Source: Aureococcus anophagefferens
Taxonomy: Eukaryota > Sar > Pelagophyceae > Pelagomonadales > Pelagomonadaceae
DNA: 64,000 nucleotides
Reading direction: 5' to 3'
Assembly (NCBI RefSeq): GCF_000186865.1
Contig: NW_008705590.1
Coordinates: 289,870 to 353,869, forward strand
Part shown: in pieces, positions 2-61,020 of the stretch
Layout: every line of letters starts with the position of its first letter
Position numbering within the stretch: the first letter of the stretch is position 1
Program-made: the position numbers and the translations under genes
Notes under the pieces: model-generated
Databases searched by the model: none
What the model saw: only the letters and a program-made list of their open reading frames with translations
What the model was told of the DNA's origin: nothing

Positions 2-3000
2 CTCTTCCTCGCCGTCGGCGCCCAGGCCAACACGCCACCTGTCAAGGTCTCGACCTACGACGCCCTGAACGCAGCCGTTCTCAACGGCGACCACAAGATC
101 TTGGTGGAAAGCGATATCACCTTCGCCGCCCCTATTGAGATCCCCGCGGGCAAGAACATCCGAATCTACGCGAAAAAAAACGCCCGGCAGACGCTCGACG
201 GCAACGGCGAGACGCAGCTCTTCCGCGTCGACGGGACGCTCACGCTCCAACACCTCGTGCTCGCGGAGGGCTACGCGACGAACGGCTTCTGCTCGTACAC
301 CGAAAACTCCGGCGAGGCCTGCGGCGGCGGCGCCGTGCACGTCGACGTGGACGCGCACCTCATCGTCGACGGCTGCGCCTTCCGGGACTCGCAGGCGCGC
401 TACGGCGGCGCGATCTACACCTACGGCGGCGCCGTCGACGTCTCCGGCTCGACGTTCACGGAGAACGGCGCCTACGAGGCCGGCGGCGCCGTCTGGACCT
501 ACGCGCACGTGGCGCTCTCGATCTCGAACTGCGAGTTCACGGGCAACGTCGCCATCAAGGCCGGCGCGGTCTTCACCGGCGGCGACGCGACCATCGCCGA
601 CTCGACGTTCTCGGGCAACGTCGCGACGGCCTCGGAGCCGTCCGACGACGACCACGCGGGCGGCTTCTGGGGCGGCGAGGGCGGCGCGATCTGGGTCAAC
701 GAGGACACGGTGCGCGTCGACCGCTGCGCCTTCGAGGGCAACCGCGCGCGCACCGAGGGCGCGGCGATCTACGTCCGGAACCTCGGCGAGGCCGTCGTCG
801 CCGCGACGACCTTTTCGGGCAACCAAGCGGACTGCGACGGCGTCGTGACGACGGGCCGCTACTCCTGCGTCGAGGGCCTCGACGACGTCCACCCGGCGTC
901 GGACCGCGCGGTCGTCGACTGCCGCGACGACTGCCCGGGCGGGAGCGTCGGCGCGTGCGCGCCCGTCGGCGACGGCGTCTGCCAGAGCTGCGCCTGCGAG
1001 CTCGAGACGGGCGCGTCGACGGCCCTGGTCCTCGAGGACGTGAACCCCGGGGCCTTCAATGCGAACGCGGACGCGCGCGCGGCGTTCGAGGCGGACGTCG
1101 GCGGCCGCCTCGGCCTCGTCGTCGACGGCGACAACGCCATCGACTGGGTCGTCGCGTCGCCCCTCGCGGTCCACGACTACGGCTACACGGACGACGCGAA
1201 GGTCACCTTCGGCGTCGCCGGCGACGCGGACGCGCTCCTCGCGGCGCTTCTGGAAGCGCTGAACGTCGGCGGCATCCCCGGCTGGGCCGTGGACCTCGGG
1301 CCGCTCGGCGCGGCGCCCGTCGACGTCGCCGCGTCGCGCGAGGCGGCGGAGACGGAGACCTTCGACCGCACGGAGCCCGGCGACACAGCCGTCGCGTCGT
1401 CGGCGATCGTCGTCGACGGCCTCGACGCCGCGGACGTCGACGCGGACGGCGACGTGCTCGAGGGCCTCGCCGCGGCCGTCGCACTCGCCATCGGCGCCGC
1501 GCCGAACCAGGTCGCCAACGTCGCCGCCAAGTGGTACCCGGCCTACGAGGGCACGGACCTCTACACGAATTTGGCGTCCACGGTCCACTTCGACGTCGCC
1601 GTCCGCGCGTGGCCGTGTGGAAATCAAATCTTCAACCCGACTTCAATGTGCGCGTAATCGACCGATTTGGACCAGACTCTTTCGCCGTGCTTCGAGAACT
1701 CGCTGAGAGCAATCGATTCGTCCAAAAATCAGCCGAATCGACTTCGATTTGACCGAGCTAGAGAATTCTGAAGTTTGGCCCCGACGTCCCAGCTCACTGG
1801 TTGATTTCCACACAGGCGCGTGGCCGACGAAGCACTGGAGCAGCGACTCCTTCACGGACGCCGCGGGGCTCGAGGCCGCGCTCGAGGCGGCCCTCGACGG
1901 CGGCGGCCTCGCGGCGGCCGTCGCGAACGAGCGCGCGCTCCGCACCGCCGTGCTCGACGAGGCCGCGACGCGGACCGCGATCGCCGCGCAGACGTCCGCG
2001 GGGCCCCACGGCCGGGTGACGCGCGCGACCTCGTCCGCCGTCGTCCTCTCGGGCGTCTCCGCGGCGGCCTTCGCCGACGACGGCGACGCGGCCGGCGCCT
2101 TCGCCGAGGCGCTCGCCGACGCGCTCGCGGTCGACGCGGGCGCCGTCTCCGCCGTCGAGGCGACGGCGCCCGGCGCCTACGGGTCGCAGCGGGCGCAGGT
2201 CGCCTTCGAGCTCGACGACCGGCGCGACGCGCGCCTCGTGCTCGACGACCTCTACCGCGTCGCGCTCGTCGACACGACGCTCAACGACTACCTCCGCGAG
2301 TCCGACGTCGCGGCGCTCCGCGGCGCGGCCATCGACTGGGGGGAGACGACGCGGTCCCTCGAGACGCTGACCTTCACGCACGCCAAGGACGACGGCACGC
2401 CCGCCGCGGCGACGCACGCGATCGTACTCGACGGCGTCGCCCCCGACGTGCTCGCGGCCGACGCCGACGCGCTGCGGGCCTTCGCGACGTCCTGCGCCGC
2501 GGTCTTAGGCGCGTCGCACCTCCAGGTCTCGGGCGTCACGTCGACGGCCTACCACTACGTCGCCGGCGACGAGTTGTGGGTCGAGTCCTGCCCGACGCTC
2601 GAGGCGCTGCCCGAGGACTCGGCGCTGTGCCCCGACGACCTCGACCTCGACGCGTGCGACGCGCCGGGCCGCGCGATCGGCGACCTCTGCGAGGGCGACG
2701 GCGAGTGCGGCACGGACAAGCACCTCGACAACTGCGGGAACGCCGACGACAAGAACGCGGACATCTACCGCGTCGTCGCGGACATCTACCGCGGGCCGGC
2801 GCACGCGGGCGTCGTGCCCCGCGGCGCGCTCGTCGCCTTCGACGTCGCGCTGCGCGCGTGGCCCGCGCGGTCGACGCCCCTGCGCACGGCCGGCGCGACC
2901 AAGGCCGCGCTCCTCGGCGCCCTCGACGGGCCCTTCGCGGACGCCTTCCGCAAGTACGGCGCGGGCACGGCGCTCGCCGGCGCCGCGATCAACTTCGTCG

Positions 3001-3446
3001 GCTCCGTCGCCGCGCTCGACGGCGAGGCCGTCTGCTGCGCGGCGCCCGACGACGACCACCACGGCGCGCACCACGATCCCGACGACCACGAGTCGGTCCA
3101 CGACGCCGCCGCGCACCACGGCGCGCACCCCGCGCCCGCCTCCTCCAAGAAGTCGTCGTCGTCGTCCGACTCGTCGGCCGTCGTCGCCGCGGCCGTCGCC
3201 GCCATCGGGCTCGTGATCGTCCTCGGCGCCTTCGCCGGCTACCGCGTCCGCCGGCGCTCGTCGCCGCGCGAGACGGCGCACGCGGGCGACGTCGAGCTCG
3301 AGGACGTCGAGCCCGACCGGGCGGCGGCCCTGGGCACCTTCCCGAAGGAGCACCCGAGCCGCGTCTCCGACTCGCGCCTCTTCCCGATCAAGCAGGCCCA
3401 CCGCGAGACCAAGTCCCCCCTCTACCCGAACGCGGAGATGATCTGA
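2..3446 (+). CDS. Beta-helix ectodomain, single-pass membrane protein (5' partial)
   Basis: The frame is open from base 2, so the start lies upstream; the first residues (LFLAVGAQA) look like the end of a signal peptide. Residues up to about 265 form repeated turns of the type GGAIY...STFTENGAYEAGGAV, typical of right-handed parallel beta-helices (Pmp/pectate-lyase-like). A cysteine-rich linker follows. Four diverged modules of the pattern A-(I/V)-V-L-x-G-V...F-x-A-D-x-D-A then occur at about 1018-1130, 1405-1500, 2035-2150 and 2418-2510. Near the C-terminus a His/Asp-rich and Ser/Lys stretch precedes one membrane helix (about 3175-3245) and a basic cytoplasmic tail, which suggests a type I surface protein. 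A 211-bp introner intron (1605-1815, GC-AG, phase 1) interrupts the gene; removing it restores VRAWPTKHW, matching the LRAWP seen in a later module. The ligand or substrate is unknown. Confidence 0.75.
1605..1815 (+). mobile_element. Introner copy 1 (203-bp family), acting as an intron
   Basis: The element is 1613-1815, beginning CCGTGTGGAAATCAA and ending TTGATTTCCACACAG, an inverted repeat with one mismatch. The 8-bp duplication GCGCGTGG lies at 1605-1612 and again at 1816-1823. The predicted intron runs from the GC of the first copy to the element's terminal CAG. Exon phase is 1 on both sides, and splicing removes exactly element plus one duplication. The sequence is visibly AT-richer than the flanking exons. 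It belongs to the same subfamily as the copy at 50088. Confidence 0.93.
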
Positions 3447-3561
3447 GCGCGTTTCCAAGTAGTGCTCGAGAGGTCTAAATACACATCCCATGTTGTTTTT
3501 AGCGATTATCCACAAAAACCAGGGGCGGCAGACTGATCGAGGAGGAGACGGCGACGAAACG

Positions 3562-4749: not shown

Positions 4750-4853
4750 CCTCAAAGAGCTGCGATGCATGCCTGTTTTCTTCGCCCAATCCTCAGCACC
4801 AGTCGCTGTTATGCCGCCGCAAGCGCGCGTAAAAATCGGGAACGCGGCGCGCC

Positions 4854-7643: not shown

Positions 7644-10251
7644 ATGGGACGCGCGCCGCCCTGGTGGTGCGCCCTCGCCGCCGCCGCGGCGCCGACGGAC
7701 CACGTCGACGTCTTCGTCGGCACGGTGAAGACCGGCAACACGTTCCCGGGCGCGACGTGGCCCCACGGCCTCGCGCAGCTGTCGCCGATCCTGGAGCCGC
7801 CGCGGGGCATGCTCTGGCACTACAACTCGGGCTACCACGTCGAGCCCGGCGCGACGTCGTCGCGGGCCCGGGGCATGGGCCACACGGCGCTCTCGGGCAC
7901 GGGCCTCAACGACGGCGGCGACTTCGTGCTGCGGCCCTGCGAGCGCCTAGCGCGGCTCGACCACGGCTCCGAGACCGCGCGGCCGGGCTTCTACGCGGCG
8001 AGGTTCGCCTGCGAGGGCGGCGGCGGCGCGGCGACGATGGCCGCGGCCGCCGCGCCGCGCGGCGGCGTCTTCGAGGTCGACTTCGACGGCGACGGCGACG
8101 TCGTGTCGCTCTACCTCGACGCGGCGTCGCCCCTCGACGCGGTCCTCGAGGCCTCCGCGGCCGTCAAGGGCGCGACGCTCGCCGCGACGCGGTCCTCGAG
8201 GCACACGCACCACTGCGCGGCGGACCACGCGACCTTTCTCCACGCGACGTTCTCGTCGCCGCCGTCGCTGGCCCAGCTCTCGGCGACGCTCTGGCGCCTC
8301 TCGTTCCGGCGCGGCGACGGGCCGCTCGTCGTCGCCGTCGGCCTGAGCCACGCCTCCGCGGCGGGCGCGGCGCGCAACGCGCCGCAAACGCCCGCGTCGC
8401 TCGCGGGCCAGGCCGACGCCGCGGACGGACAAGGGTGATTCAACGTCGCTTCAACGTGAGTGTTCCGCGCGCGCGCGTTCCGGAAAAAGCATCCACGCGT
8501 CGAGACCGTTCCGAGAGATGATCGCTCGTCCAAAAATCAGCCGAAACGAGTGGAAACCGGCCGAGCTAGGAGCCTTTGAAGTTGGGAATTTCGCACTCTT
8601 GTCCTGCCCAGGCCGACGCCGCGGACGCCGCCTGGGCCGCGCTCCTCGGCCGCGCGCGCGTCCGCGGCGACGACGGCGACGTCGGCCGCTTCTACACGGC
8701 GCTCTACCACGCGTTCCTCGGGCCGACGCTCTTCTCCGACGCCGACGGGTCCTACGTCGCCCGCGGCGCGCGGAGGCGCGCGGCCGAGGGCCGCGCGATC
8801 TACTCCACCTTCTCCCTCTGGGACACGTACCGCGCGGCCGCGCCGCTCGGCCTGCTCCTCGAGCCGGAGCGCGCCGCGGACTACGCGCGGAGCCTCCTCG
8901 CGTTCTCCACGGAGGACAAGGTGCTCCCGCGCTGGGTCTTGTTCGGCAAGGACACGGGCTGCGCGCGCGCGGCGTCCGAGGCGCCCGCCCGAGGCGACGT
9001 TTTTTTCGACAGGCATGTCGGGCTACCCCGCGGCCGTGGTCTTGGCGGACGCCGTGCTCAAGAATCGGTCGGAGTTCCCGCCGGGCCTCGCGGCGCGCGC
9101 GGCGGAGCACGCGATCGCGACGGCGCGCGCCTTCGACCCGGCGCTGCGCCGCAACGCCCACCTGCCGAGCACGCAGGGCTTCTCCGTGTGCCGCGGCGGC
9201 GTCCCGGCGCGCGCGACGGACCCGCCGCCACCGGTCGCCGCCCGCGCAGGTCGCGGGGCCTGGAGGCCGCCGTCGCGGACAAGTGCGTGTCGCGCCTCGC
9301 GGCGCGCTCGGCGACGCCGCCGCCGCGGCCGAGTTCGAGCGGCGCGCGGGGCTCTACCGCGAGTACTACGACGCGGACCGCAGGCTCATGGCCGCGCGCG
9401 AGCCCGGCGGCGCCTTCGTCGCGGCCGCGGGCGAGGCCTTCGACCCCGCGGGCGCCTTCGAGGAGGGCACGCCGCTCCAGTACACGTTCATGGTCCCCGG
9501 GGACGCGGAGGGCCTCGCCGCGCTCCTCGGCGGGCCCGACGCGCTCGGCGACCGCCTCGACGACTACTTCCTCCGCGCGTCCATGGCCAACCCGACGCGC
9601 CAGCTCGACCTCACGACGGGCACCATCGGCGGCCACTGCCAGGGCAACGAGCCGGGCCACCACGCGCCCTACCTCTACAACGTCGCGAACCGGCCCTGGC
9701 GGACCGCGGAGACGATCGACGCGATCAACGAGCTCTACACGGCGTCGGAGATCCCCGGCAACGACGACGTCGGCCAGACGTCCGCGTGGTTCGCCTGGTC
9801 CGCGCTCGGCCTGTACCCGGTGGACCCCTGCGGCGACCGCCTCCACCTCGGGAAGCCGCTCTTCATGCGCGCGGACGTTGACGTCCGCGCCACCCTCGAC
9901 GGCGCGGCGCGCGTGCTGACGATCCTCGGCGACGGCTGCCGCGACCGCGGCGCCCACGTCCAGTCCGTCTGGTTCGAGGGCTCTCGCGTCGCGGCGCACG
10001 AGGTCGCCTGGGCCGACGTGGCCAACGGCGGCGTGCTGCGCTTCGTCTGCGGCGCGCCGGCCGTCGACTACGCGACCGCGCCGCCGCCGCCGGCGCCGCG
10101 GCTCCGCGCGGCCGCCGCCGGCCGCGGCCCGCCGCTCGCGGCGCGCGGCGCGGCGGCCGCGGCCGTCGCCGCCGTCCTGCTCCTCGCGCGGCGGAGCTGC
10201 CGGCAGGGCGCGAGCGCCATCGCCGCGCCGCCGCCCGCGAAAGAGATGTAG
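7644..10251 (+). CDS. Glycoside hydrolase family 92 alpha-mannosidase-like protein (three introns, one frame break)
   Basis: The start MGRAPPWWCALAAAAAP gives a short signal peptide. GH92 landmarks follow in order: VFVGTVKTGNTFPGATWPHG, GMGHTALSGTG, FYTALYHAFLGPT, FSLWDTYRAAAPL, DTGC-MSGYPAA across an intron, GTIGGHCQGNEPGHHAPYLYNVAN and GNDDVGQTSAWFAWSALGLYP. The family removes alpha-linked mannose from glycans using Ca2+. A hydrophobic helix and RRSC near the C-terminus suggest a membrane anchor. Introns inferred from frame and family match: 8412-8611 (an introner, GC-AG), 8961-9012 (GC-AG) and 9173-9249 (GC-AG, less certain). At about 9300-9312 the frame changes by one base between SRLAAR and LGDAAAAAEF with no plausible intron, so an assembly error or a true frameshift is likely. 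Confidence 0.8.
8412..8611 (+). mobile_element. Introner copy A (192-bp family), acting as an intron
   Basis: The element is 8420-8611, ending TTGTCCTGCCCAG. The 8-bp duplication GCCGACGC is at 8412-8419 and 8612-8619. The predicted intron is GC-AG, phase 0, 200 bases. The 5' inverted repeat is eroded (CGCGGACGG where the sister copy at 37462 has CTGGGCAGC in the same sense). It shares the internal word CGTCCAAAAATCAGCCGAA (8527-8545) with the 203-bp family. Its orientation relative to the host gene is opposite to the copy at 37462. Confidence 0.88.
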
Positions 10252-12406: not shown

Positions 12407-13669
12407 CTACCACGGGCTCTCTCTCACGGGGCGTCTCCGCGCGCACGATCCGCGGGCGTGGTACGCGTCGGCGACGTCGGCGGCGAAGGGGGCGACGCAG
12501 GCGACGGCGCCGACGGCGACCGCGGCGGCCTTGGCCGCGCCGACGACGCGGTCGATGGGCGCGTCCGGGACGAGGCCCCGCGCCGCCTGCCTGCCGCCGT
12601 CCGCCGCGACGGCCGCGAGCGCCCAGGCGACGACGAAGCCGTAGAGCGGGTCGCCCGTCGTCCGGAGCACGTAGGCCGCCGCGGCCGCGGCGACGGCCAC
12701 GGAGCCGAGGGCCCCGGCCTCCTTGACCCGGAGGTCCGCGCCGCGGAGCGCGAGGTACTTGTTGATGTTCACGAGCGTCGCGCACGTGACCCACGCGAAG
12801 TGGAGCGACAACGGCCAGCGCACGAGGAGGTCGTTGCGCAGGCCCCGGAGCGGGCCCGCGGCGTAGAGGTCGAGCCCCTGGAGCGCCGCGTGGGCCTTGC
12901 CGAGGAAGAACGCCGTCGCGGCCAGCGCCGCCGACGGGATCCAGAGCGCGCCGGGGCCGCAGACCGACGGCCGGAACAGCCCGCACCAGGCGACCTGGCA
13001 GAGCGTGCCCGCGCACCAGGGCGCGGCGATGGCCGCGCCGACGTCGAAGACGGGGTGGCCCGGGTCCGCGGCCGTGACCAAAAGCATAGTGACGCACTCG
13101 CCGAGGAAGATGGGGCCCCAGATCGCAAAGGCCCAGCCCGCGGGCGCGAGCAGGTTCGCCGTCGCCGCCGTCGGCGCGCCGTCGCCGCCGCCGTCGTAGC
13201 GGCCGGGCACCATGACGGCGACGTTGTTCAGCGTCCAGCACGCCGCGACGGCCGCCTGCCACGGCGCGGGACCCCGGCGGGCGACCGCCGCGCGGACCGC
13301 CGTCGTCGCCAGGCCCGCGGCGGCGTAGGCCGCGACGACCTTCGGCGACAGCGGCGGCTGGGCCGGCCGCGCGTCGCCGCCGCGCAGGCCTTCGAGCGCG
13401 GCGCCGTTGCCGCGCGCCTCGGCGTGCGAGCGTTGCAGCTCGGTGATGTATGCGGCGGCACTGAGGCCTTCGAGCTCAACGTCCGCGCGCTCGAGCGCTC
13501 CGCGCCGTTGCTGCGCAGCTCGACGCCAGGCGTACGCGGCGGCGCTGATGCCTTCGAGCGCGGAGTGCTCCGCGCCGTTGCTGCGCAGCTCGCTGACGCC
13601 AGGCGGACCGCGAGGCTCGTGCAAGGCCGTCGCCGAGCACGCGAGAAGTAGGATCTTTGAGAGAGCCAT
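12407..13669 (-). CDS. Multi-pass membrane protein resembling TspO/MBR family, repeat-bearing N-terminus
   Basis: The start MALSKILLLACSATA is a signal-like sequence. A repeated N-terminal region follows (units ending ALEGISAAAY, ELEGLSAAAY, ALEGL; DNA repeat at 13385-13612). The rest has five or more hydrophobic helices. LLAPAGWAFAIWGPIFLGE and LVRWPLSLHFAWVTCATLVNI resemble signature segments of TspO/MBR-like (tryptophan-rich sensory) proteins, which are small membrane proteins linked to tetrapyrrole and sterol transport. The family assignment rests on these two segments only. The gene converges on the sulfotransferase gene, with 216 bases between the stops that show nothing recognisable. 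Confidence 0.6.
   Translation of the reverse strand: MALSKILLLACSATALHEPRGPPGVSELRSNGAEHSALEGISAAAYAWRRAAQQRRGALERADVELEGLSAAAYITELQRSHAEARGNGAALEGLRGGDARPAQPPLSPKVVAAYAAAGLATTAVRAAVARRGPAPWQAAVAACWTLNNVAVMVPGRYDGGGDGAPTAATANLLAPAGWAFAIWGPIFLGECVTMLLVTAADPGHPVFDVGAAIAAPWCAGTLCQVAWCGLFRPSVCGPGALWIPSAALAATAFFLGKAHAALQGLDLYAAGPLRGLRNDLLVRWPLSLHFAWVTCATLVNINKYLALRGADLRVKEAGALGSVAVAAAAAAYVLRTTGDPLYGFVVAWALAAVAADGGRQAARGLVPDAPIDRVVGAAKAAAVAVGAVACVAPFAADVADAYHARGSCARRRPVRESPW
13385..13612. repeat. Imperfect 80-bp tandem repeat inside a coding region
   Basis: About two and a half diverged units begin GCCTTCGAGC near 13388, 13468 and 13551. Each carries a GTTGC(x0-3)GCAGCTCG block, and two carry GCGGCGGC(A/G)CTGA. 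On the minus strand they encode repeats ending ALEG(I/L)SAAAY, so length change is in units close to 27 residues. Confidence 0.65.
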
Positions 13670-13761
13670 TTGAGTTGGCAGCGTCAACGTCGTTCTTGAA
13701 CTTCAATCAATTGATTGAGACCTCACCTGATCCGTATTCACCAAAGCAATTAGGTAGTACG

Positions 13762-16607
13762 ATGCCCCAGTTTCACCAAGGCAGCCCCGCGCCGCCGGTG
13801 GCCGGCGCCGAGGCGATGAACGGCATGAAGCGCAGCGTCGCGCGGAGCCACAGCAACCAGCGCATGGGCAGCGCCTCGGGCGGCTCGCGCCTCGCCCGGA
13901 CGCCGAGCGGAAAGGCGACCGTGAGCCGCATGAACTCGAAGCAGCGCGTGACCAACGCGGCGAGCGCGCGCCTCGCGAGCGGCGAGAGCGTGGCGCTGCG
14001 CGACGTCAACGGGAACACGGAGCAGGTCATCCAGGCGCTGCAGAACATGATCTCCGACAAGACGGGCAACTCGGCGACGGGCGCCGCCTTTCTCCGCGCG
14101 CTCGTCTTCGACGAGGCCGCGGACGCGGTCGTCGACCACAAGGTCGCCAACGCGCGCAAGATGTTCGACCCGGAGCTGAACATCTCGCTCATGCGCGCCG
14201 CGCAGCTGCCGCCGGACATGCGCGGCCGCGCGGAGATGCGGACGATCGCGCGGCACCTCGGCTGGCACCCCTTCTTCTCGTCCGTGCGCGGCTACCTCAA
14301 GCAGAAGCTCTTCCGCAACATCCGCCTCGTGTCGCCGCGCCTCGGCGACGTCGTCGTGCTCCAGGGCGACCTCGCGGACTCCATCTTCATCTGCTACCAC
14401 GGCATCTTCGCGGTGCACTCGGCGAGCGACGAGGACCTGTTCACGATCCGGCGGCGGCGCGACCGCGTGCTCGCCATCCCCGTGGCCTCCTCCGAGGACG
14501 CCTACACGCGGTCGTCGGAGAAGAAGCTGGGCCCGCGCGTCGCGACGCTCAAGCGCGGCAACTCCTTCGGCGAGCGCGGGCTCTCGCCGGCCGTGTCCGA
14601 GGTGCGCAACGCGACGGTCGCGGCGTTCAGCGACGACTGCCACCTCTTCTGCATCCACCGCGAGGACCTGCTGGGCGACGGCGGCGTGACCGCGGAGATG
14701 AAGCGGCGGCGGCCGACGAACTTCGGGGAGGCGGGGCCCGACGAGCTCCTCCTCGAGGTGCTGGGCAAGCCCGCGAATTTAAGGACCCAGGGCGACATCG
14801 AGCTCATCGCGACCAAGTGCGGCTGGCACGCCTTCTTCGAGGGCGCGGACCCCGAGGCGACGCGCGTCGTCTTCCGCCAGCTCAAGGTCGTCCGCGCGCC
14901 GCCGGGCCGCGTCGTCCTGTGCCGAATTCAACCACTGGTTTGGGTGGTCCTGACCAAACTTGAGAATTCTCTAGCTCGGTCAAATCGAAGTCGATTCGGC
15001 TGATTTTTGGACGAATCGATTGCTCTCATCGAGTTCTCGAAGCCAAGCCAAAGAAGTTGCGTCGAAACATTCGCGTACGCTCACATTGAAGTCGGGTTGA
15101 AGATTTGAATTCGGCACAGGCGTCGTCGTGCTCCAGGGCGACCTCGCGGACTGCTTCTACCTCGTCTACTGGGGCGGCTGCAGCGTCTGGGCCACGCCCA
15201 AGGCCAAGGCGCTCAACCAGTGGAAGGGCCTCAATTTGTGGATCCCCGAGGACGGCGCCGACGACGGGAAGCCGCGCGTCTGCAAGCTGCCCGTCGCGCT
15301 CCGTGTGGAAATCAAATATTCAACCCGACTTCAATGTGCGCGTATGCGACGGTTTCGACGCAAGCTCTTCTGCTGTGCTTCGAGAACTCAATGAGAGAAA
15401 ACGATCCATCCAAAAGTCAGCCGAAACGACTTCGATTCGACCGAGCTCGAGAGTTCTGAAGTTTGGTGGGGACCCCCCATACCAGTGGTTGATTTCCGCC
15501 CAGGTCGCGCTCGCGGGCAAGCAGGTCGCGAAGCTCGAGACGGGCCAGAGCTTCGGCGAGAGCGGCCTGGACCCGGCGGGGAACAAGCGCCGCACGGCGT
15601 CGATCATCTCCATGGGCGCGCGCGCGCCGCGCGGCGACGGCTCGCCCATCCGGCCCGACGCGCCGCGCGACGGCGACACGCTCCTCCTCGTCGTCTACCG
15701 CGACGACATCGACAACCGCACGCAGCAGGCGGCGAACGCGACGCAGGACGCCGCGCGGCGCGCGTCGTTGAGCGGCGCCGTCGACGAGGCGACGGGCGAG
15801 CGGCTCACGCAGGCGCAGATCGACGAGGCCGCGGACGACCTCGCCATCGCCGAGTCGGAGGTCGCGCGGCGCAAGACGGAGTGCCAGTCTTTGGAGGCGC
15901 GCGACGTCGCGCCCGCGCGCGAGCGGCGCCGGTCCTCCGTCGTCGCGCGCGAGACCGAGGAGCAGGCCGAGCGCAAGTCGCGCGCGTCCGCGCTCCGGAG
16001 CCGGCTCTCCGCGACGGGCGGCGGCGTCCGCGCGCGCAAGTCCCTCCGGAGCCGCATCTCCAACGCGGGCGCCGAGGACCAGCTCAAGGGCATCGCGGCC
16101 CTCGCCCTCGCCCACGAGGAGCACCGCGGCGACACCATCGACGAGGAGGACAGCGGCGACTCGTCCACGGGCGACGAGTCGTCGGGCGACGACCTCGAGG
16201 ACTCGCTCGAGGACGCGTCGCGCGACCTCGACGACTCGGCGGAGGCGTCCGCGGGCAAGGCCCCGGAGGAGCCGCCGGACGCCGACGACGCGGGCATCGA
16301 CGTCAACGACGAGGAGCTCGAGCGCGACTGGAACAAGTGGCGCCGCGTCGCCTACGTCGTCGAGCTCGAGAACTACGACAAGCTCACCAAGGGCGGCCGC
16401 ATGACGAAGATCCGCGACTCGAAATCGAAGAAGAAGCGGGGCACGTCGGCCCAGCGCAAGGGGTCCGGCGCGCCGAGCGGCAGCGGCGACAGCGACCTCG
16501 ACGCGGCCGTCGCCGCGCGGCGCCGCAAGGAGTCCGTCTCCGACGGCGGCCCCGACGAGGACGCGCCGGGGAAGGACGAGGAGGAGCGGCCGGCGGAGCC
16601 GACTTAA
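13762..16607 (+). CDS. Double cyclic-nucleotide-binding-domain protein with two introner introns
   Basis: Three exons (13762-14908, 15120-15292, 15504-16607) join to 2424 bases, 807 residues, without frame conflict. Two CNB-type beta-barrels are visible. The first has GDVVVLQGDLADSIFICYHGIFAV...GNSFGERGL. The second, GRVVVLQGDLADCFYLVYWGGCSV...GQSFGESGLDP, is split by both introners. In the family these pockets bind cAMP or cGMP; the phosphate-binding cassette (FGE-x-(A/G)-L-x-x-x-x-R-x-A) is only partly kept, so binding is uncertain. The N-terminus is basic and Ser/Asn-rich and the C-terminus is charged and low-complexity. It could be an orphan PKA-regulatory-like protein. The chosen ATG (TACGATGCC) lies clear of the divergent neighbour; an in-frame upstream ATG at 13657 would overlap it. 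The stop overlaps the stop of the convergent HD-domain gene. Confidence 0.8.
14909..15119 (+). mobile_element. Introner copy 2 (203-bp family), reverse orientation
   Basis: The element is 14917-15119, with perfect inverted ends CTGTGCCGAATTCAA and TTGAATTCGGCACAG. The 8-bp duplication GCGTCGTC is at 14909-14916 and 15120-15127. The intron is GC-AG, phase 1, and splicing restores PPGRVVVLQGD. The element body is the reverse complement of copies 1, 3 and 5 relative to the gene, yet still ends in CAG. Confidence 0.94.
15293..15503 (+). mobile_element. Introner copy 3 (203-bp family), forward orientation
   Basis: The element is 15301-15503, beginning CCGTGTGGAAATCAA and ending TTGATTTCCGCCCAG. 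The duplication GTCGCGCT is at 15293-15300 and 15504-15511. The intron is GT-AG, phase 0, restoring LPVALAGKQVAKL. It leaves a middle exon of 173 bases between itself and copy 2. Confidence 0.94.
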
Positions 16608-34699: not shown

Positions 34700-34875
34700 G
34701 GGTCTAGACCGCCGGTACAGCTAGGTCGCTTCCAGGCTCGTCGCAGCGCCCATCCTTTGTGGCAAGAACAAGTTGAACATCACCAAAAACGTTGCACCCC
34801 CGACCAAGCGCTAACTCGAGGTGAGGCCGCCGCCCGGCGCGTCGGAGGCAGCCCTCCGGGCGCGCGCCGGTCACC

Positions 34876-39495: not shown

Positions 39496-39545
39496 NNNNN
39501 NNNNNNNNNNNNNNNNNNNNNNNNNNNNNNNNNNNNNNNNNNNNN
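39496..39545. other. Assembly gap (50 N)
   Basis: Fifty undetermined bases, probably a placeholder of arbitrary length, lie inside a gene. Reading frames are open on both sides, but their phase relation cannot be known. Confidence 1.
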
Positions 39546-47066: not shown

Positions 47067-47110
47067 TTGCAATGAGACTGCAATGAGAACTGCAACACAC
47101 TGCAACATAC
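47067..47110. promoter_or_regulatory. Four about 11-bp CTGCAA repeats between divergent genes
   Basis: The words TTGCAATGAGA, CTGCAATGAGA, CTGCAACACA and CTGCAACATAC follow one another, with spacing of about one helical turn. They lie in the 111 bases between the plastid gene (minus) and the ASH-domain gene (plus). A transcription-factor array is possible. Confidence 0.4.
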
Positions 47111-47174
47111 ACTCCGTATCCGATACAACCGCGCTACCCCGTCGCTCGACGATGCCTCTGCCAAAACCGTGAGC

Positions 47175-50100
47175 ATGTCGAAGCGGAACAGCATCAAGAA
47201 GAGCAAGGGCCCCGTGGAGCCCGAGGTCGAGGAGGCCAAGGGCCACAACCCGAAGGAGGACGCCGCCGTCGGGTCCATCTCGCACATCCTGCGCACGCTC
47301 TTCCGCGGGCTCTACGAGGACGAGGCGCGCGAGAAGGCCGAGGCCGAGGAGCAGGAGAAGCTCCAGGCGGAGCAGGACGCCAAGGCGCAGAAGAAGGCGA
47401 AGAAGAAGGGCAAGGCGAAGAAGGGCGCGAAGACGGGCCGGGAGGCGGCCGTCGAGGACGACGCGTCGCTCGACGACGACGACGACGACGGCGCGGTCGA
47501 GCACGGCGACGCGCCCTGGTTCGACGCGAGCCACCTCAAGGACGTGGAGCACACCAAGGCCCTCGCCGCGCGGCGCCAGGACGCCATCGCCGCGCGCCTG
47601 GGCCGGCAGCAGAAGCAGGCGGACGGCCTTTTAGCGTACATGGGCGAGCAGATCCGCGTCGCCGCGGCGGCCGACGAGGAGGAGGAGCGGTCGCTGAAGA
47701 AGCGGGGCCTGCTCGTCTCGGCGCACATCCCCCAGGCCGCGTCCCAGCTCGAGCTCACGTCCGCGGCGCTCGCGGACGGCGGCCACTTCTCCGCCGCTTT
47801 GGTCACGGCCGCGGACCTCATCGAGGCGAACCGCAAGGCGCTCGCGCGGCGCTCGGGCAACATGGAGGCCGCGGGCGTCACGTCCAAGGCGTCGGCGGTC
47901 CTCGCCACGGGCGCGCCGGGCTACTTCAAGCTCACGGCGACGAACAAGGTCCGCCAGAAGCTCGCGCTCCAGCGGAGCCACGGCCCCTGCGGCGACAAGG
48001 GCGACCCGACGGCGCTCACGCTCCTGCGCACGTCGCTGTCGGCGCCGGGCGCCGACGAGGGCTCGGGGTCCGCGACGACGGCGCGGCCGAGGCGGCCCGA
48101 CGTCGGCGCGTCCGTCGAGCAGCAGGATTTAGACCTCAAGGTGCTGACGCGCATGGAGCAGAAGCTCCACTTCCTGCGGAACCCGCGCTACGACGCGCAC
48201 AACCCAAACCACCAGCGGCGTCTCACCGCGCGGCCGCCGTCGCCGCGGCGCATCGGGCGGGAGACGTACGCGGAGACGGACCCGGCGGCGATCGCGCGCC
48301 GGGAGGCGCTCGACCGCGACGGCGACGGCGCCGAGGAAACGCAGCTGCGCGACGTGCCCCTCGTCATCGTCGAGCCCCGGGAGGTCGCCTTCAGCAACCA
48401 CGTCGTCGGCGGCGCCTACGAGCAGGCGCTCTCGATCAAGAACGCGTCGGCGATCTCGCGGCGGCTGCGCCTGCTCCGCCCGCGGACCAAGTTCTTCACC
48501 GTGGCGTCGGTCAAGTGGCCCGGCGCCAGGGACAGTGGCAACCTCGCCCCGGGCATGTCGCTGCGGGTCCTCATCCGCTTCGAGCCGGACAGCCTGGCGG
48601 ACTACGAGGACGAGCTTAGAGTGGTGTCGGAGATCGGCGAGGTTTCGGTGCGCCTGCGCGCGACGCGGGACCCGCCGGTGCTCACGCTGCCGGACCAGCT
48701 GGACGTGGGCGCCTGCCACCTCGGCGGAAGACTGGAGACGTCCTTCGCGGTGACGAACGCGGGCGGGCCCGGCCGCTTCCGATTATTGCGGGAGCAGGAC
48801 TACCCGTCGCCCGTCGCCGCCCAGCGCTACAGCGACACGATGCGGCTCTTGCCCTACTACACGGTGAAGCCGACGTCCTTCGATTTAGGGCGGGACGAGA
48901 CGACGCAGATCCGGGTCACGTTCGCGCCGGACGGCGCGCCGGGCGAGCACCGCGCGAACTTTCTGCTCATCGGCGACGACTGCCGCGTCGTCACGCACGT
49001 GCTCGTGGGCCGCGCCGAGGCCGTCGAGGTCACGGCGTCGGACCTCGACGGCGTGGATTTACTGGCGGACGCGTCGTACGCGCCGCCGGACGCGCTCGGG
49101 TTTGAGTCGCTGCCGCTCGGCGCTTCCGCGACGCACGAGGTGTCGCTGCTGAACCGCGGCGAGCTGCCGCTGGCCTTCGACTGGCGCGTCGACGAGGACG
49201 CGCCAGATTCGGGTTTTACAGTGGCGCCCGTCGCGGGCGTGCTCGAGCCGCGGTCGAAGCAAAAAATCACGGCGAGCTTCTCGCCGTCGCTCGCGGCGCC
49301 CGTCGGCGCGACGGCGGCGCTGGTCGTGCGCGGCGTGCCGCGGCTCGCCGCGGGCTCCCTGCCCGTCGTCGGCGCGAGCGACCGCGAGGGCCGGGGCGAC
49401 TTCGTCGACGTCGAGGCGTACAAGTTCGCGATGCGCGGCGCGGGCCACCGCGTGCGCCTCGACGCGGCGCCGCGCTGCGTGGCGCTGCCCTGCGCGCTGG
49501 GCCTGGGCAACGTCTACGAGCTCGACGAGGAGCTCGTGACGCTGTCGAACCCGACGGGCGCGCCCGTCGAGTGGTTCTGGGGCGCCGCGGCGACGCGCGG
49601 CGCCCTCGTCCTCCCGGACGCGCTGCTCGCGCCGGACCCGGCTATAGCGGCGGCGACGGTCGAGTGGGAGCCGAGCCGGGGCGTGCTCGGGCCCGGCGAA
49701 TCCGTCGAGTGCATGATGCGCCTCGACGCGACGCGCGTCGGCTCGACGGATCTCGCGCTGCCCTGCTTCGTCGTCGACCGGCGCGGCGGCGACCCCTACG
49801 AGTCCTGCCGCGTCGTGCTCAACTGCGAGACGTCCGGGGGGCGCCTGCGCTTCGCGGAGCCCGAGGTGGACCTGGGGTTGATCGCGGTGGGCGCGAAGAA
49901 GGAGCACGTCATCACATTCACAAACGCGACGTCCGGCGACCTCGAGTTCTCCTTCGCCGAGGTCGCCGACGCGGGCCTCGGCGGGAGGCACTCGGGCTCC
50001 CAGAAGTCGCTCGGGGGCCGGTCGTCGTCGAAGGCGTCCGACGGCAGGAAGTCGAAGTCGGACGCGTCGAACGGCGACGGCGAGAACCCGTGTGGAAATC

Positions 50101-53100
50101 AAATCTTCAACCCGACTTCAATGTGCGCGTAATCGAACGATTTGGACCAGACTCTTTCGCTGTGCTTCGAGAACTCGACGAGAGCAATCGACCCGTCCAA
50201 AAATCAGCCGAATCGACTTCGATTTGATTGAGATAGAGAGTTCTGAAGTTTGGTGGGGACCCCCCAAACCAGTGGTTGATTTCCACACAGGCGAGAACAA
50301 CGAGTTCAAGATCGACTCGCCCTACTGCCAGCTCATGTTCGACCCGCCCGTCGGCACGGTGGGGCCCCGGGGCGAGGCGTCCGTGCGCGTCGTCTGCTCC
50401 GCGGGCAAGCTGCCGCAGCGGCTCCGCGCGCACGCGCGCGTCGACGTGCGGAGCGGCCGCGCGGCCGCGGAGCCCCAGTTCATGAGCCTGCGGGGCGAGG
50501 TCCAGGCGCCCAAGGTCTACCTGACGGAGACGGACGTCGACCTCGGCGTCGTCTACGTCGGCGTGCCCGTGACGCGGTCGCTGCGGCTCGTGAACCTGTC
50601 GAACCTGTCGACGCGGTTCAAGTGGGAGCGGCCCGGCGGCGCGTCGTCGACCTTCGACCTCGGCTTCAGCCCGCCGAGCGACGTGCTCGACGCGAAGCAG
50701 GTCTGCGACGTGACCATGACGTTCTGCGCGCTCTCCGCGGGCGTCGTCGACGAGGTGCTCGGCTGCCGCATCTTCGGCATGTCGCTGCCCCTGGGCTTCA
50801 CATTAAAGGCCATCTCCAAGGCCGCGGTGCTCGCCTACGAGCTGTTGCCCGACGGCGCCGAGCCGCCGCCGGCGCTCGCGGACGCGGCGCTGCCCCAGCT
50901 GCCCGAGGGCGTGTCCGTGCCGTCGCAGCCGCCGCCGCCGAAGCTCGACTTCGGCGCGGGCGTGCCCCTCTTCGAGCGCAAGACCGTGCGCCTCGCCATC
51001 CGCAACCTCAGCGCCATCGCCGCCAAGTTCTCCATCGCGCCGAAGAAGTACCCCGTGGCGAAGCGCGACCCCGCGCCCGGCGACGCGGCGTCGGCCGCGT
51101 CGGGCGGCACGGCGCGCGGCCGCCGCAAGCCCATCCTGGACGACTCGCTGGAGAGGACGAACACGTTCACGAGCGTCGGCGGCCGGGCGCACAACGCGAA
51201 GCGCCGCGTGGCCGCGGAGGACTCGGAGGTGCTCGGCGGGGGCAACGGCGTCGCGTTCTCCGTGTCGCCCGCGGCGGGCGTGCTCGTGCCCTGGGGCGTG
51301 CTCGTCGTCACCGTGACGGCCTACAACAACATGGCGGGCCTCTTCACGGACGCTTTAGAGTGCGACGTCGAGTCCGTGCCCGCGAGCCGGCTGCCCATCC
51401 GCCTGAGCGTCCGGGGCTGCCCGCTGACGCTACGGCCCGAGTGCGCGGGGCTGGACCTGATCACGTCGCCGGAGCGGCCCATCCTGAACTTCGGCCAGAT
51501 GTGCGTCGGGTCGCCCCAGGCGCTGGCGAAGCACGTGCGCGTGCGCAACAGCGGGCCCGTCGACGCGCTGCTGACGTGGCGCGTCGTGCCCGAGGGCGGC
51601 GGCGCGGGCGACGAGGACCGCGCCGTCGACGTCGCCGCGAGGTACGTCGGCGGCGACGACCCCGTGCGGCTCACCATCAAGTGGCACGAGCAGGTCGAGT
51701 ACGACCCGCCTTTTACGGTGGACCCGCCGGAGCTCAAGGTGCCCGCGCACGGCGACGGCGCGTTCGTCGTGCGCCTCCGGCCGGACACGGTAGCTCCCGG
51801 GTCGCGCCACCTCGAGGACGCGGGGCCGTCCGGCACGGTGCGCGCCATGATGGTCGCGGACGCGCTCTGGGTGTCGCGGCCGAAGACGCCGGGCGCGTCC
51901 GCGGACCTCGACAACGAAGCGGACGGGCCCAAGGTCGAGAACCGCCTCGCGGGCCTGTCGCTGACGACGCTGAGCACCGTGGGCCGCGCGAGCGGCATCC
52001 TGAAGAAGGCCAACGACCCGCGCGTGCTCCAGGCGCTCAAGGTCGTCCTCGACACGAAGCTCGTGCGCCCGCGGCTCCAGCTCGAGAAGGCCGCGGCGGA
52101 CGGCGGCCACACGCTGCGCTTCAAGACCTGGTCGACGACGGTCATCGACACGCGCGTGCGGCGCAACGCGGCGACGGCGACCTTTTTTCCCGCCGCGGGG
52201 CTCGCGGCCGCGGCCGCGGGCGACCCGTCGACGGCCGTCGCGCGGAGCGGCGACCCGGGCTCGCCCGGCGACCCGCCGGGCACGGCGTCCGGCGCGTCCG
52301 TGGCCACGTCCACGGGCGGCATCCCGTCGAGTCTGCACCGGCGGGCCATGCTCCGCAACGTCGCCGACATCCCCCTGACGTGCTCGCTCGACGTGACGTC
52401 GCCGTTTTCCATATTGACCGCGTCGTCGACGTCCTTCTCCTACAAGGGCCGCGACTGCCTCCACAGCGACCTGCATTTGCTCCCGCGGCGGAGCCTCAAT
52501 TTGGACATCCTGTTCAGCCCGCCGCCGCTGCCGCCGTCGTCGCCCTTGGAACCCGCGAAGCTCAAGTACGACTACGACGGCGAGCTCATCGTGCGCTTCT
52601 CGACGGGCCAGGAGCAGCGCGTGGCGCTCCAGGGCACCGTCGTGCGGCCGGCGCTCGTGGCGTCGCCGCCGGCCCACGACTTCAAGGTCGTGCGCACGGA
52701 CGGGTCGTCGTGCCTGAGCCTCTTCCTCTCGAACCCGACGGAGGTCGACATCGAGTGGCAGCTCCGCCACGTGCCGCGCGGCGACCGCGTCTCCGACGGC
52801 ATCGACGGCGACAACGCGCCCCTCGACTCCGTCGACGACCCCTCCGTCTTCGACTTCAGCGACGTCACCGCGCACATGACGGGGCCGTCGCTGCCCTTGA
52901 AGTCGGCCGCCGCGTGCGTGCCCAAGGACTTCAACCGCCTCGCGGACTCCCTCTTCTCCCAGACGGTCACGGCCCTCACCTGGAAGCCGGGCGGCGGCGA
53001 CCACGACGAGGCCGTCACGTCCCTCGACGCGGCGCTCCGCGCGGAGGCGCGCGCGAACCCGCGCGTGCCGCTCCCGGTCACCGTGACCTTCAAGCCCAAG

Positions 53101-53235
53101 CGCGACGTCAAGTACTGCAGCCGCTTCCGCTTCGACGTCCACAAGGGCGAGCCCTTCGACATCGTCCTCCAGGGCGTCGGCTCCTACGAGGAGAACGTCC
53201 TGCCCCTGACCGTTCGCGTCGCGGGGAACGCCTAA
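47175..53235 (+). CDS. ASH-domain (HYDIN/CFAP/DLEC1-type) cilium-associated protein with one introner
   Basis: Exons 47175-50079 and 50291-53235 join to 5850 bases, 1949 residues. After a Lys/Glu-rich coiled region (KAEAEEQEKLQAEQDAKAQKK), the protein consists mostly of immunoglobulin-like ASH/MSP-type beta domains: LVIVEPREVAFSNHVVGGAYEQALSIKN, PPVLTLPDQLDVGACHLGG, YVGVPVTRSLRLVNLSNLST and LIVRFSTGQEQRVALQGTV. The C-terminus is FKPKRDVKYCSRFRF followed by GVGSYEEN. Such domains occur in HYDIN, CFAP47/65/74 and DLEC1, structural proteins of motile cilia; which one this is cannot be settled here. The introner (GC-AG, phase 1) restores GDGENNEFKIDSPYC. The start is the ATG at 47175 (GAGCATGTCG). 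Confidence 0.8.
50080..50290 (+). mobile_element. Introner copy 5 (203-bp family), forward orientation
   Basis: The element is 50088-50290, beginning CCGTGTGGAAATCAA and ending TTGATTTCCACACAG. The duplication GCGAGAAC is at 50080-50087 and 50291-50298. The intron is GC-AG, phase 1. It is very close in sequence to copy 1; both carry GATTTGGACCAGACTCTTTC where copies 2, 3, 4 and 6 carry a TTTCGACGCAAG-type segment. Confidence 0.94.
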
Positions 53236-57310: not shown

Positions 57311-57448
57311 TTATTGCAGGGAAAGGAGCTGCCAGCGGCATTCGGGCAATCATGATGTTGGGAAGCACGAAGGATGATCACTCCCAGCCTCGATGAGACG
57401 TGGATGGAGCGAGCCTCGCACCTGCCGCGCGCGTCGCATGACTGCCGC

Positions 57449-57571
57449 ATGAAGCCGAAGGCGTCGCCGTCCATCTCGGGCGCATGAAGGCGAAGCGGCC
57501 CCTCGCGTCGCCGTCCATCTCGGGCGCATGAAGGCGAAGCGGCCCCTCGCGTCGCCGTCCATCTCGGCCGG
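57449..57571 (+). repeat. Tandem repeat carrying three ATGs in three frames
   Basis: Units of 35, 44 and about 44 bases each begin ATGAAG and end near CCGTCCATCTCGG; the first unit lacks nine bases. Their ATGs at 57449, 57484 and 57528 fall in the three different reading frames; only the last opens the zinc-finger/ubiquitin-like gene. Confidence 0.85.
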
Positions 57572-59033: not shown

Positions 59034-59051
59034 TGTGGCACTTAGGGAGCT

Positions 59052-61020
59052 CTAGCGGCCGTCGGCGACCGACTTGGCCCGGGACGGCGTATTCGCGTCC
59101 GGGCTGTCGTCGCCGCGGCGCGCGCGGGGCGCGGGCGAGTCGGCGCCGCGGCCGCCGCAGCGCGGGAGCGACTTGGCGCGGAGCATGCGGGACCGCTTGG
59201 ACACCGTCGACGCGCGGCCGGCCGCCGGCGAGAGCTCGAGGGACGTGAAGGCGAAGAACTCCTCGAGGCGGAAGCTCGCGTATCCACCGAGGCACCCAAG
59301 CCGCGCGACGTCGGCGAGGCGCGGCCGGTCCGCCGCTTTAACGGCGAACAAGGCCGCGAGGAGCGCCTCGAGGCCCGCGACGGCCTTCGCGCGCGCCCGC
59401 CCGTCGGACCGCGTCTCCGCGCGTTTCTGGCCCTCGACGAGCGCCGCGGCCGCGAGGCTCGACGCGAAGCGGCCCGCGATGGCCGCCGCGTGGCGGTCCG
59501 CGTCGTCCTCGAGGAGGAGCATGCCGAGGAAGGGCGGCTCGTTGGGCAGCGACGCGGACGTCGCGACCTCGTAGAGCACGCAGCCCAGGCCGTAGGCGTC
59601 GACGGCCGCGCCGCGGACGCCCGCGGCGCCCGCCGGCGGCGCCGGCCCCGCGGCGTCGTCGCCGTCGGCGTCGCCGTCGGCGAAGCACTCGGGCGGCTGG
59701 TAGACCTCGGTGCCGCCGACGCTCGAGGACCGGGAGCCGCCGCCGGCCGCGTGCTCCGCGTAGCGCCGCGCGGCGTCGGACCGCGCGGGCCCCGCCGCCG
59801 CCGCGACGGCGAGGCCGAAGTCGCCGATCTTGATCGTGCCCCGGAGCACGAAGACGTTCTCGAGCTTGATGTCGCGGTGCACGACGCCCTGGGCGTGCGC
59901 GTACGCGAGGCCCGTCGCGCACTGGCGCGTGACCTCGACGACGGCGGGCAGCGGGAAGGGCACGCCGGAGGCGACGTGGTCCAGTAAGCTTCCGCCGGCG
60001 CAGTCCTCCATGGCGATGCACGCGTAGTCGGCGACGGCGCCGCCGCGGAGGTCGAGCGCGAAGAGGCCGTTGGAGCCGTCCTCGCGGTGCACGAAGGTGT
60101 CGTAGTAGGCGACGATGTGGTCGTGGCGCAGGGCCTGCAGGTGCCGCGCCTCGTCGAGCACGTTCTGCAACCCGTGGATGTCGCGCTCGAGGTCGACGCG
60201 CACCTGTGTGGAAATCAATTCTTCAACCCGACTTCAATGTGCGCGTATGCGACAGTTTCGACGCAAGCTCTTCGGCTGTGCTTCGAGAACTCGACGAGAG
60301 CAATCGATTCGTCCAAAAATCAGCCGAATCGACTTCGATTTGACCGAGCTAGAGAATTCTGAAGTTTGGTCAGGACCACCCAAACCAGTGGTTGATATCC
60401 ACACAGACGCGCACGAGTTTCAGCACGACGCCCGCCGGCGTCGCGCAGCGCCAGACCGCGCCGAAGCCGCCCTCGCCGATCTTCTCGTCGACGCGCACGG
60501 CGCCGGCGCAGAGGCGGCACGCGCAGGGCACGCGCGCCCGCTTGGGCCCCAAGAGCGGCGACGCGACCAAGGCGTCGAACGCCGCGAGGAATCCGCCGAC
60601 GGCCAGCAGGAGCACGGCGCCGACGCCCGGCGCGAACCAGGGGCCCAGCAGGTCCGCGAAGTCGTCGGACGTCGTCCGCTCGACCTTGAAGTTCGCGCTC
60701 CGCCCGACGAGGCAGCTGTTCACGAGCGCCAGCGCCGCCCGGAGCCGCAGCTCGCCGCCGCGCGCGCCGCAGGACCCGTCGAGCGCGCCGAGCCGCGCCG
60801 CGACGCGCTTCCGCAGGGCCGCCACGGCCTCCGTCGGCCGGCCCGTCGTCGCGTCCCACATGGACGCCCTGTCGCCGGGCTCCGATTCCGCCGTGAACGC
60901 GGCGTCGGCGTCGTCCACCAGGTCCGCGAGGCCGCAGCGCGTGCCCGCGGCGTCGCCCTCGGACTCGTCGGCGCCCTGGGTCAGCTCGATGATCGACGCC
61001 TGAGAGAGACGGGATCTCAT
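59052..61020 (-). CDS. Single-pass transmembrane Ser/Thr protein kinase with an introner inside the kinase domain
   Basis: Exons 61020-60415 and 60203-59052 give 585 residues. MRSRLSQASIIELT opens a soluble N-terminal region, then one membrane helix (VGAVLLLAVGGFLAAFDALV, about residue 118). The kinase domain follows: glycine loop IGEGGFGAVW, Lys in VVLKLV, catalytic HRDIKLEN, metal-binding GDFGLA, and activation-segment end GGTEVYQPPE. All core residues are present, so an active kinase is expected, with the kinase in the cytosol. The introner lies directly after the VVLKL strand, and splicing restores LKLVRVDLERDIHGL. The C-terminal tail is basic and Ser-rich (SKRSRMLRAKSLPR). The ligand is unknown. 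Confidence 0.88.
60204..60414 (-). mobile_element. Introner copy 6 (203-bp family), in a minus-strand gene
   Basis: The element is 60204-60406; on the plus strand it begins CTGTGTGGAAATCAA and ends TTGATATCCACACAG, one mismatch between the arms. The duplication is ACGCGCAC on the plus strand (60196-60203 and 60407-60414), GTGCGCGT in the sense of the gene. The intron is GT-AG, phase 0. The element body is antisense relative to its gene. Confidence 0.95.

What the first reader, a model, noticed from the sequence alone, without database searches (positions are those of the whole stretch)
1605..60414. Six 203-bp introners with inverted ends and 8-bp target duplications, each an exact intron
Copies at 1613, 14917, 15301, 36495, 50088 and 60204 are all exactly 203 bases, with ends of the form CTGTGTGGAAATCAA / TTGATTTCCACACAG. 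Each is flanked by 8-base repeats. Removing element plus one repeat restores the protein frame every time, and in the cNMP-binding, ASH and kinase genes the total length stays divisible by three. This is DNA-transposon insertion that created introns. Introners are known in Aureococcus and Micromonas; six in 60 kb suggests a very active burst.
Basis: partly seen in the sequence, partly recalled or inferred. Interest (0 to 1): 0.92.

Follow-up and report, generated by a model that had tools for sequence, protein, structure and literature searches.

The report
Jumping DNA that becomes algal introns
Short jumping DNA pieces in the genome of a brown-tide alga sit inside genes as what look like ready-made introns; this was already known for this alga, but counting copies across the genome suggests that one of the two families carries a splice signal at only one of its two otherwise matching ends.

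Summary
In detail: six 203-bp elements with inverted ends and 8-bp duplications (perfect in 5 of 6), frame restored in 6 of 6 when 211 bp are removed. Two copies of a second family B (introns 8412-8611, 37454-37653) were missed. A gene product matches Aureococcus anophagefferens proteins at 99-100%, so these are the ~210-bp introners already described there (Huff 2016, recalled; PMC9481584, passages). On the gene strand, inferred from codon usage alone, the duplication starts GC/GT in 165 of 168 copies and the element ends CAG in 164 of 168: donor borrowed from the target, acceptor carried. Environmental proteins of 97-99% identity read across 3 of 4 family A sites tested, and one carries an insertion the window lacks. 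Possibly new: family B ends are polarity-locked. With exact end octamers, copies with one acceptor end number 1122, with two about 6, with none 0. No autonomous partner with these ends was found; no RNA evidence was available.

The parts
1605..1815 (+). family A introner as intron: duplication GCGCGTGG (1605-1612) + element 1613-1815; second duplication 1816-1823; direct orientation
14909..15119 (+). family A introner as intron in the cNMP-binding gene: duplication GCGTCGTC + element 14917-15119; reversed orientation; environmental protein P0001 is uninterrupted here
15293..15503 (+). family A introner as intron in the same gene: duplication GTCGCGCT + element 15301-15503; direct; occupied in P0001, whose frame runs into it
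36487..36697 (+). family A introner as intron in a WD40 gene: duplication GTCTTCGC / GTCCTGGC (6 of 8) + element 36495-36697; reversed; environmental protein P0018 is uninterrupted here
50080..50290 (+). family A introner as intron in a HYDIN/CFAP-like (ASH, Ig-like) gene: duplication GCGAGAAC + element 50088-50290; direct
60204..60414 (-). family A introner as intron in a kinase gene on the minus strand: duplication GTGCGCGT (60414-60407) + element 60406-60204; reversed; environmental protein P0003 is uninterrupted here
8412..8611 (+). family B introner as intron (200 bp), direct; its gene-left end reads CGCGGACG, the same bases as in the exon downstream, instead of CAGGGCAG
37454..37653 (+). 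family B introner as intron (200 bp) in the same WD40 gene, reversed; duplication GTCTACGA; P0018 is uninterrupted here
2..3446 (+). host gene, right-handed beta-helix protein (open frame after removing 1605-1815)
13597..16607 (+). host gene, cyclic-nucleotide-binding protein (open frame after removing both introners; relatives carry PF00027)
34825..39351 (+). host gene, WD40 protein; open frame after removing the two introners, true end not determined
47076..53235 (+). host gene, HYDIN/CFAP-like protein
59052..61395 (-). host gene, protein kinase
38066..38082 (+). uninterrupted site in the window (approximate): P0018 runs into a family B introner here, the window does not

Best explanation
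These are introners: non-autonomous DNA transposons (MITE-like) with inverted ends and 8-bp target duplications. Inserted in an exon, an element duplicates 8 bp of coding sequence. If those 8 bp begin with GC or GT on the gene strand, the first copy supplies the 5' splice site; the element's own last bases (CAG) supply the 3' splice site, so splicing removes exactly one duplication plus the element and restores the message. Shown here: anatomy, copy number, frame restoration, the GY and CAG on the gene strand, and uninterrupted sites in close relatives. Inferred: that the transcripts are really spliced there, and that a cut-and-paste transposase acting in trans moved them. Family A can provide CAG from either end and is found in both orientations. 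Most family B copies have CAG at only one end; they fall into lineages that fit genes in one orientation.
For: Anatomy and frame. Genome copies: 774 exact 15-base ends (control 0), 1822 exact cores (control 0), 1122 B copies with exact end octamers (control 1). Sample of 176 distinct full-length copies (82 A, 94 B; 9 partial, 1 edge and 15 duplicate hits dropped): duplication 8/8 in 136 of 176 against 0.4% in an equally optimised mispaired control. Gene strand from codon usage, tested on pieces of the window's own five genes (150 of 152 right; 150 of 151 with the final model), usable for 168 of 176: GY at the duplication start in 165 of 168 (dinucleotide background in those genes 19.6%; wrong strand 20 of 77 A and 36 of 91 B), CAG at the gene-right end in 164 of 168. 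In the subset not picked by its ends (82 usable of 84): GY 80 of 82, CAG 79 of 82. Second end base, in usable copies with at least 6 of 8 matching (1 A and 3 B dropped): at the acceptor end T (read inward) in 75 of 76 A and 86 of 88 B; at the other end the consensus base in only 53 of 76 and 66 of 88 (Fisher 5e-7, 1e-5). Uninterrupted sites: P0001 at 14917, P0018 at 36495 and 37454, P0003 at 60204. Insertion in P0018 that the window lacks. Coding-like flanks in 82 of 84 copies against 70-71% of random pieces (many random pieces overlap, so p values are rough).
Against: No RNA reads could be examined. Four of 168 copies lack CAG and three lack GY; some may be misplaced ends. Site 15301 is occupied, not empty, in P0001. 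P0021 crosses the 36495 site but diverges six residues later, so it is weak. The uninterrupted sites rest on protein records; that their gene callers do not splice is inferred from P0001 and P0018 running into introner sequence. Three annotated A. anophagefferens kinases (P0004, P0006, P0008) do not follow the junction proposed at 60204. The codon model was trained on the window's own five genes. No autonomous transposase bearing these ends was found.
Confidence: 0.95

Rival explanations
1. RNA-based spread: excised introns are reverse-spliced into other messages, copied to DNA and recombined in (as proposed for fungal introner-like elements; PMC9860276, section read).
For: Insertions are strongly exonic (82 of 84 against about 70% of random pieces) and look like exact introns.
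Against: 8-bp duplications in 136 of 176 copies and symmetric inverted ends; both orientations relative to the gene, 85 direct and 83 reversed of 168, which reverse splicing does not give; the intron's first 8 bases differ between copies apart from the leading GY.
Confidence: 0.02
2. Ordinary MITE insertions in weakly expressed genes or pseudogenes, with splicing incidental.
For: No transcript data.
Against: GY on the gene strand in 165 of 168, nearly invariant acceptor end beside a relaxed other end, frame restored in 8 of 8 window copies, close protein matches on both sides of the join in three genes.
Confidence: 0.02
3. For the family B end rule only: the terminal second base is set at insertion, or by inversion of the interior between the inverted ends, so it follows the gene strand rather than an inherited lineage.
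For: The base follows gene orientation in both element orientations; a few reversed copies (such as L049) sit inside direct clades with both ends switched; other end positions are alike at the two ends of a copy (position 9 p = 6e-10, position 11 p = 4e-9, 77 copies), so the ends may exchange sequence.
Against: Orientation is strongly clustered on a tree built without the ends: 9 changes against 29.7 in shuffles, 0 of 500 as low, as expected of inherited one-way lineages with some switches; but well-supported branches alone force only 2 changes, and near-copies make labels cluster.
Confidence: 0.25
4. The mobilising enzyme is a P-element-type (TNP-like) transposase; the alternatives are hAT-type or another 8-bp-duplication superfamily.
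For: The only hit among three transposase families tried is PF21787 on contig 25 (43 bits; 45 bits on exon 1). P elements make 8-bp duplications and hAT elements have CAGGG-like ends (both recalled).
Against: The single copy found carries 7 in-frame TAG in its first exon and more stops after it; no family A or B ends were seen near it, and its left side reads N. PF05699 and PF18758 gave nothing, but their controls rang nowhere, so absence is not shown.
Confidence: 0.3

Closest known systems
Introner elements of Aureococcus anophagefferens (Huff, Zilberman and Roy 2016, Nature, doi 10.1038/nature20110; not held, recalled)
   Same: Same or nearly same species by protein match; about 210-bp introns (length quoted in PMC9481584, passages read); non-autonomous DNA transposons with inverted ends and duplications, one splice site carried and one co-opted (recalled).
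   Different: No difference in kind.
Introners surveyed by Gozashti et al. 2022 (PMC9860276; passages and section 8 read)
   Same: Their Fig. 2B class: 3' splice site carried, 5' splice site taken from the target duplication (shown for Symbiodinium, 4 bp, with inverted ends).
   Different: 8-bp duplication here. Their Aureococcus sp. example (TARA MAG, Fig. 2F) is another mechanism, carrying both splice sites and adding 12 bp to the transcript.
Pelagomonas calceolata introns (PMC9481584, passages read)
   Same: Intron length peak near 210 bp, compared there to Aureococcus introners.
   Different: Sequence relation to families A and B not tested.
Introners of Amoebophrya (PMC7789003, passages read)
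   Same: Introns with inverted repeats and flanking direct repeats that appear to spread like transposons.
   Different: Direct repeats are 3-5 nt there and most of its introns have non-canonical splice sites; another lineage.

Membership tests
Introner (intron-generating transposon) | many near-identical introns dispersed in one genome | tested here: met
   hundreds to over a thousand exact matches, controls 0-1
Introner (intron-generating transposon) | removal restores the coding frame exactly | tested here: met
   8 of 8 window copies
Introner (intron-generating transposon) | one splice site carried, the other co-opted from the duplication | tested here: met
   by sequence: CAG 164 of 168; GY 165 of 168 on the gene strand
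Introner (intron-generating transposon) | transcripts spliced at these sites | not testable with these tools
   no RNA reads
Introner (intron-generating transposon) | site empty in relatives | tested here: met
   proteins only: 3 of 4 family A sites tested and 1 of 1 family B site; 15301 occupied; sites 1613, 50088 and 8412 not tested
MITE (non-autonomous cut-and-paste DNA transposon) | terminal inverted repeats | tested here: met
MITE (non-autonomous cut-and-paste DNA transposon) | target duplication of fixed length | tested here: met
   8 of 8 in 136 of 176
MITE (non-autonomous cut-and-paste DNA transposon) | autonomous partner with the same ends | tested here: inconclusive
hAT superfamily | 8-bp duplication and CAGNG-type ends (recalled) | tested here: inconclusive
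   family B CAGGG at one end only; family A CTGTG
hAT superfamily | hAT dimerisation domain (PF05699) encoded by a partner | tested here: inconclusive
   no match, but the control rang nowhere
P-element superfamily | TNP-like RNase H domain in a partner with these ends | tested here: inconclusive
   one interrupted copy, ends not seen
Aureococcus anophagefferens introners | same species | tested here: met
   P0017 and P0020, named A. anophagefferens, 99-100% identical to the WD40 protein
Aureococcus anophagefferens introners | sequence identical to the published families | not testable with these tools
   the 2016 paper and its sequences are not held

The most novel reading that the evidence does not exclude
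Family B introners are polarity-locked. Their two ends are kept alike except at the second base, where one end is the transposon-type CAGGG and the other a splice acceptor (CCCAG outward). Counting exact end octamers over the whole genome, copies with exactly one acceptor end number 1122, with two about 6 (13 places, 7 of them offset artefacts), with none 0. A single terminal base change therefore turns the transposon into an intron maker for one orientation, and the scarcity of two-acceptor copies, which could splice in either orientation and should do better, suggests that one unaltered end is needed for mobility: a trade-off between jumping and splicing. Lineages switched orientation by changing both ends: 9 times on the best tree, at least twice by well-supported branches.
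Probability: 0.5. Interest if true: 0.65.

Novelty: already known. Interest (0 to 1): 0.45.

Why it matters
Introners are a leading explanation for how genomes gain many introns at once, and this is one of the founding examples seen from raw sequence. The end-polarity rule, if it holds, makes an open question testable: how a transposon becomes splice-competent without losing mobility. The environmental alleles (uninterrupted sites, and an insertion absent from the window) suggest that insertion is recent enough to be polymorphic, so the cost of a newborn intron could be measured in wild populations.

Tried and rejected
Autonomous partner: KDZ (PF18758) and hAT (PF05699) gave no match with silent controls, so nothing is concluded; P-type (PF21787) gave one interrupted copy. 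Its region contains an old introner inside the transposase gene: taken as an insertion into it, not as the origin of the introners.

Viral carriers: the core in IMG/VR gave one 20-base match, in L169, a contig of 39% GC that looks like an unrelated phage. The 15-base end gave 43 matches; none of the 44 loci matched the family models at E 1e-3: chance.

A first reading of family B as having 14-20 bp duplications was dropped: 30 copies printed show longer ends and 8-bp repeats, and measures 8/8 in 75 of 94.

Family A both-ends-mutated test: 43 places with one CC end, 2 of which do not look like the family, against 1 place with two, also not the family. With few copies expected this is not informative.

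Sampling bias: most A loci outside the core-targeted set were chosen by a perfect end or by similarity to the 1613 copy, and 30 B loci by similarity to one copy. The core-targeted set plus the window was therefore counted apart; there the B used/unused contrast is weaker (p = 0.02), and nearest-neighbour identity is lower (A 92.6%, B 95.8% at the median) than in the whole sample (95.0%, 97.4%).

Searches that found no report of the end rule: (listings) and passages, in the held library only; Huff 2016 is not held.
Full report
OBSERVATION. Taking out one repeat plus the element leaves an open frame through the join in all six; natural-looking protein continues across the joins of a beta-helix protein, a cNMP-binding protein (two introners), a WD40 protein, a HYDIN/CFAP-like protein and a kinase on the minus strand. 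Three copies are direct and three reversed relative to the gene. Two further introners of a second family (B, 192 bp, ends CAGGGCAGG.../...CCTGCCCAG) lie at 8412-8611 and 37454-37653, also frame-restoring. A and B share an interior core.

GENOME AND SPECIES. The window is part of a 49.05-Mb assembly of 86 contigs. The WD40 protein is 99-100% identical to two proteins named Aureococcus anophagefferens (P0017, P0020), and a published strain has 49.9 Mb and 70.5% GC (PMC11237714, part 1 of 2 of the text read). So this is A. anophagefferens or something extremely close. Exact counts: family A end 774 (control 0), shared core 1822 (control 0). The window has 5 exact cores where 2.4 are expected (P = 0.09), so it is not exceptional. 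In the set not chosen by ends, nearest-neighbour identity is 92.6% (A, 31 copies) and 95.8% (B, 51 copies) at the median and mean pairwise identity 83% and 90%: B looks the younger family, though the set was chosen by an intact core.

HOW THE INTRON IS MADE. 176 distinct full-length copies were collected. Gene strand was inferred from codon usage in the flanks, without using splice motifs (150 of 152 test pieces correct; 150 of 151 for strand and for frame with the final model), for 168 of 176. On that strand the 8-bp duplication begins GC (96) or GT (69) in 165 of 168, against 19.6% of dinucleotides in the training genes; the element ends CAG in 164 of 168. Read on the wrong strand the duplication begins GY in 20 of 77 A and 36 of 91 B copies. 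GC is three times as common as GT in this coding DNA but only 1.4 times as common among donors (p = 9e-8), so GT is favoured though GC is widely used. The duplication matches 8/8 in 136 of 176 against 0.4% in a mispaired control with the same end search. Introns begin after codon position 3, 1 and 2 in 67, 40 and 61 cases (p = 0.03). Among usable copies with at least 6 of 8 matching (4 dropped), the acceptor end is nearly invariant at its second base (75 of 76 A; 86 of 88 B) while the other end of the same elements departs from its consensus there (23 of 76; 22 of 88) although positions 1 and 3 beside it hardly do. In family A other end positions vary about as much at both ends. That within-element contrast is the best evidence here, short of RNA, that splicing is under selection. 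In the subset not chosen by its ends the contrast is strong for A (p = 2e-5) and weak for B (p = 0.02).

RECENT INSERTION. Environmental protein P0001 (99% identical) reads without break over the 14917 site but runs into introner sequence at 15301 (the same read-through letters). P0003 (97%) is continuous over the 60204 site; P0018 (98%) over 36495 and over the family B site at 37454, and then runs into a family B introner at a place near 38073 where the window is uninterrupted. So presence and absence go both ways between close relatives. These are protein records: that their gene callers do not splice is inferred from these run-ons. Against: site 15301 is occupied in P0001, P0021 is ambiguous, and three annotated A. 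anophagefferens kinases do not follow the 60204 junction. Copies sit in coding-like sequence in 82 of 84 cases against about 70% of random pieces.

END POLARITY OF FAMILY B. In the 91 usable copies the gene-left end is never CTG; it is CAG (67), CGG (15), CCG (5) or other (4), while the gene-right end is CAG in 88. Because the ends are inverted, this means one transposon-type end and one acceptor end per element, and which is which follows the gene: direct copies have the acceptor at their right end, reversed copies at their left. Genome-wide with exact octamers and 170-182 bases between: one acceptor end 1122 (571+551; control 0 and 1), none 0 (controls 1 and 1), two 13 places (controls 2 and 2), of which 7 start with an offset CTGGGCAGGGC and 6 look genuine from their printed starts. 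Copies with other base changes in the octamers are not counted. On a tree made without the ends, orientation clusters (9 changes against 29.7 shuffled, 0 of 500 as low; well-supported branches force 2; the tree is poorly resolved and near-copies help clustering). Positions 9 and 11 are mostly alike at the two ends, so the opposite state at the second base stands out. Family A differs: both ends are usually CTGTG, so either orientation can splice, and both are found (44 direct, 33 reversed).

INTERPRETATION. Best reading: the known Aureococcus introners. The most interesting addition is that family B became splice-competent by a one-base change at one end, in both directions, and that elements altered at both ends barely exist, as if one intact end were needed to move. 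An alternative, interior inversion or end exchange, would also keep the outer bases in register with the gene; a few copies that switched orientation inside a clade (such as L049) fit it. This was not settled.

PARTNER. No autonomous element with these ends was found. The only transposase match, among three families tried, was a P-element-type gene on contig 25 with in-frame stops, split by an old introner of this same kind. Whether it ever moved these elements is unknown.

NOVELTY. Introners in this species are in print (Huff 2016, recalled, not held; cited for the ~210-bp length in PMC9481584, passages read). The end-polarity count was not found in the papers held (searches; passages of PMC9860276), which does not show that it is unpublished.

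Noticed in passing
L213:4459-6460 (G000 contig 25, near 178372): A P-element-type (PF21787) transposase gene whose first exon of 398 codons has 7 in-frame TAG, no TAA or TGA, and only 6 CAA/CAG codons; the second part has TAA, TAG and TGA. Could be decay or an odd code; not resolved.
   Followed up: partly
L213:5654-5813: An old introner (family B model E = 8e-19, family A 1.5e-13) splits that transposase gene; flanking words GTAAGCTA/GTAAACTT, 6 of 8; ends CGGAG and CATAG.
   Followed up: partly
8412-8430: The gene-left end of the family B copy reads CGCGGACG, the same 8 bases that follow the duplication in the downstream exon, instead of CAGGGCAG; looks like an end overwritten from the exon.
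   Followed up: no
G000:C27:39448-39653: An element with family A ends (CCGTGTGGAAATCAA...CCACACAG, 206 bp) but an unlike interior: possibly another introner family or a trace of the parent element.
   Followed up: no
family A and B interiors (e.g. 1718-1737, 8526-8545): A 20-base core, TCGTCCAAAAATCAGCCGAA, is shared by both families (1822 exact copies; 5 in the window) and nearly by the old copy in L213, although much of the rest differs. Its function (branch point, enzyme binding?) is unknown.
   Followed up: no
family B alignment column 189 (about 16 bases from the right end): A in 37 of 41 direct copies but 10 of 49 reversed copies: a second base that follows orientation, a possible branch-point adenine.
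   Followed up: no
39434 and 39496-39545: 51 unknown bases (N) in the window.
   Followed up: no
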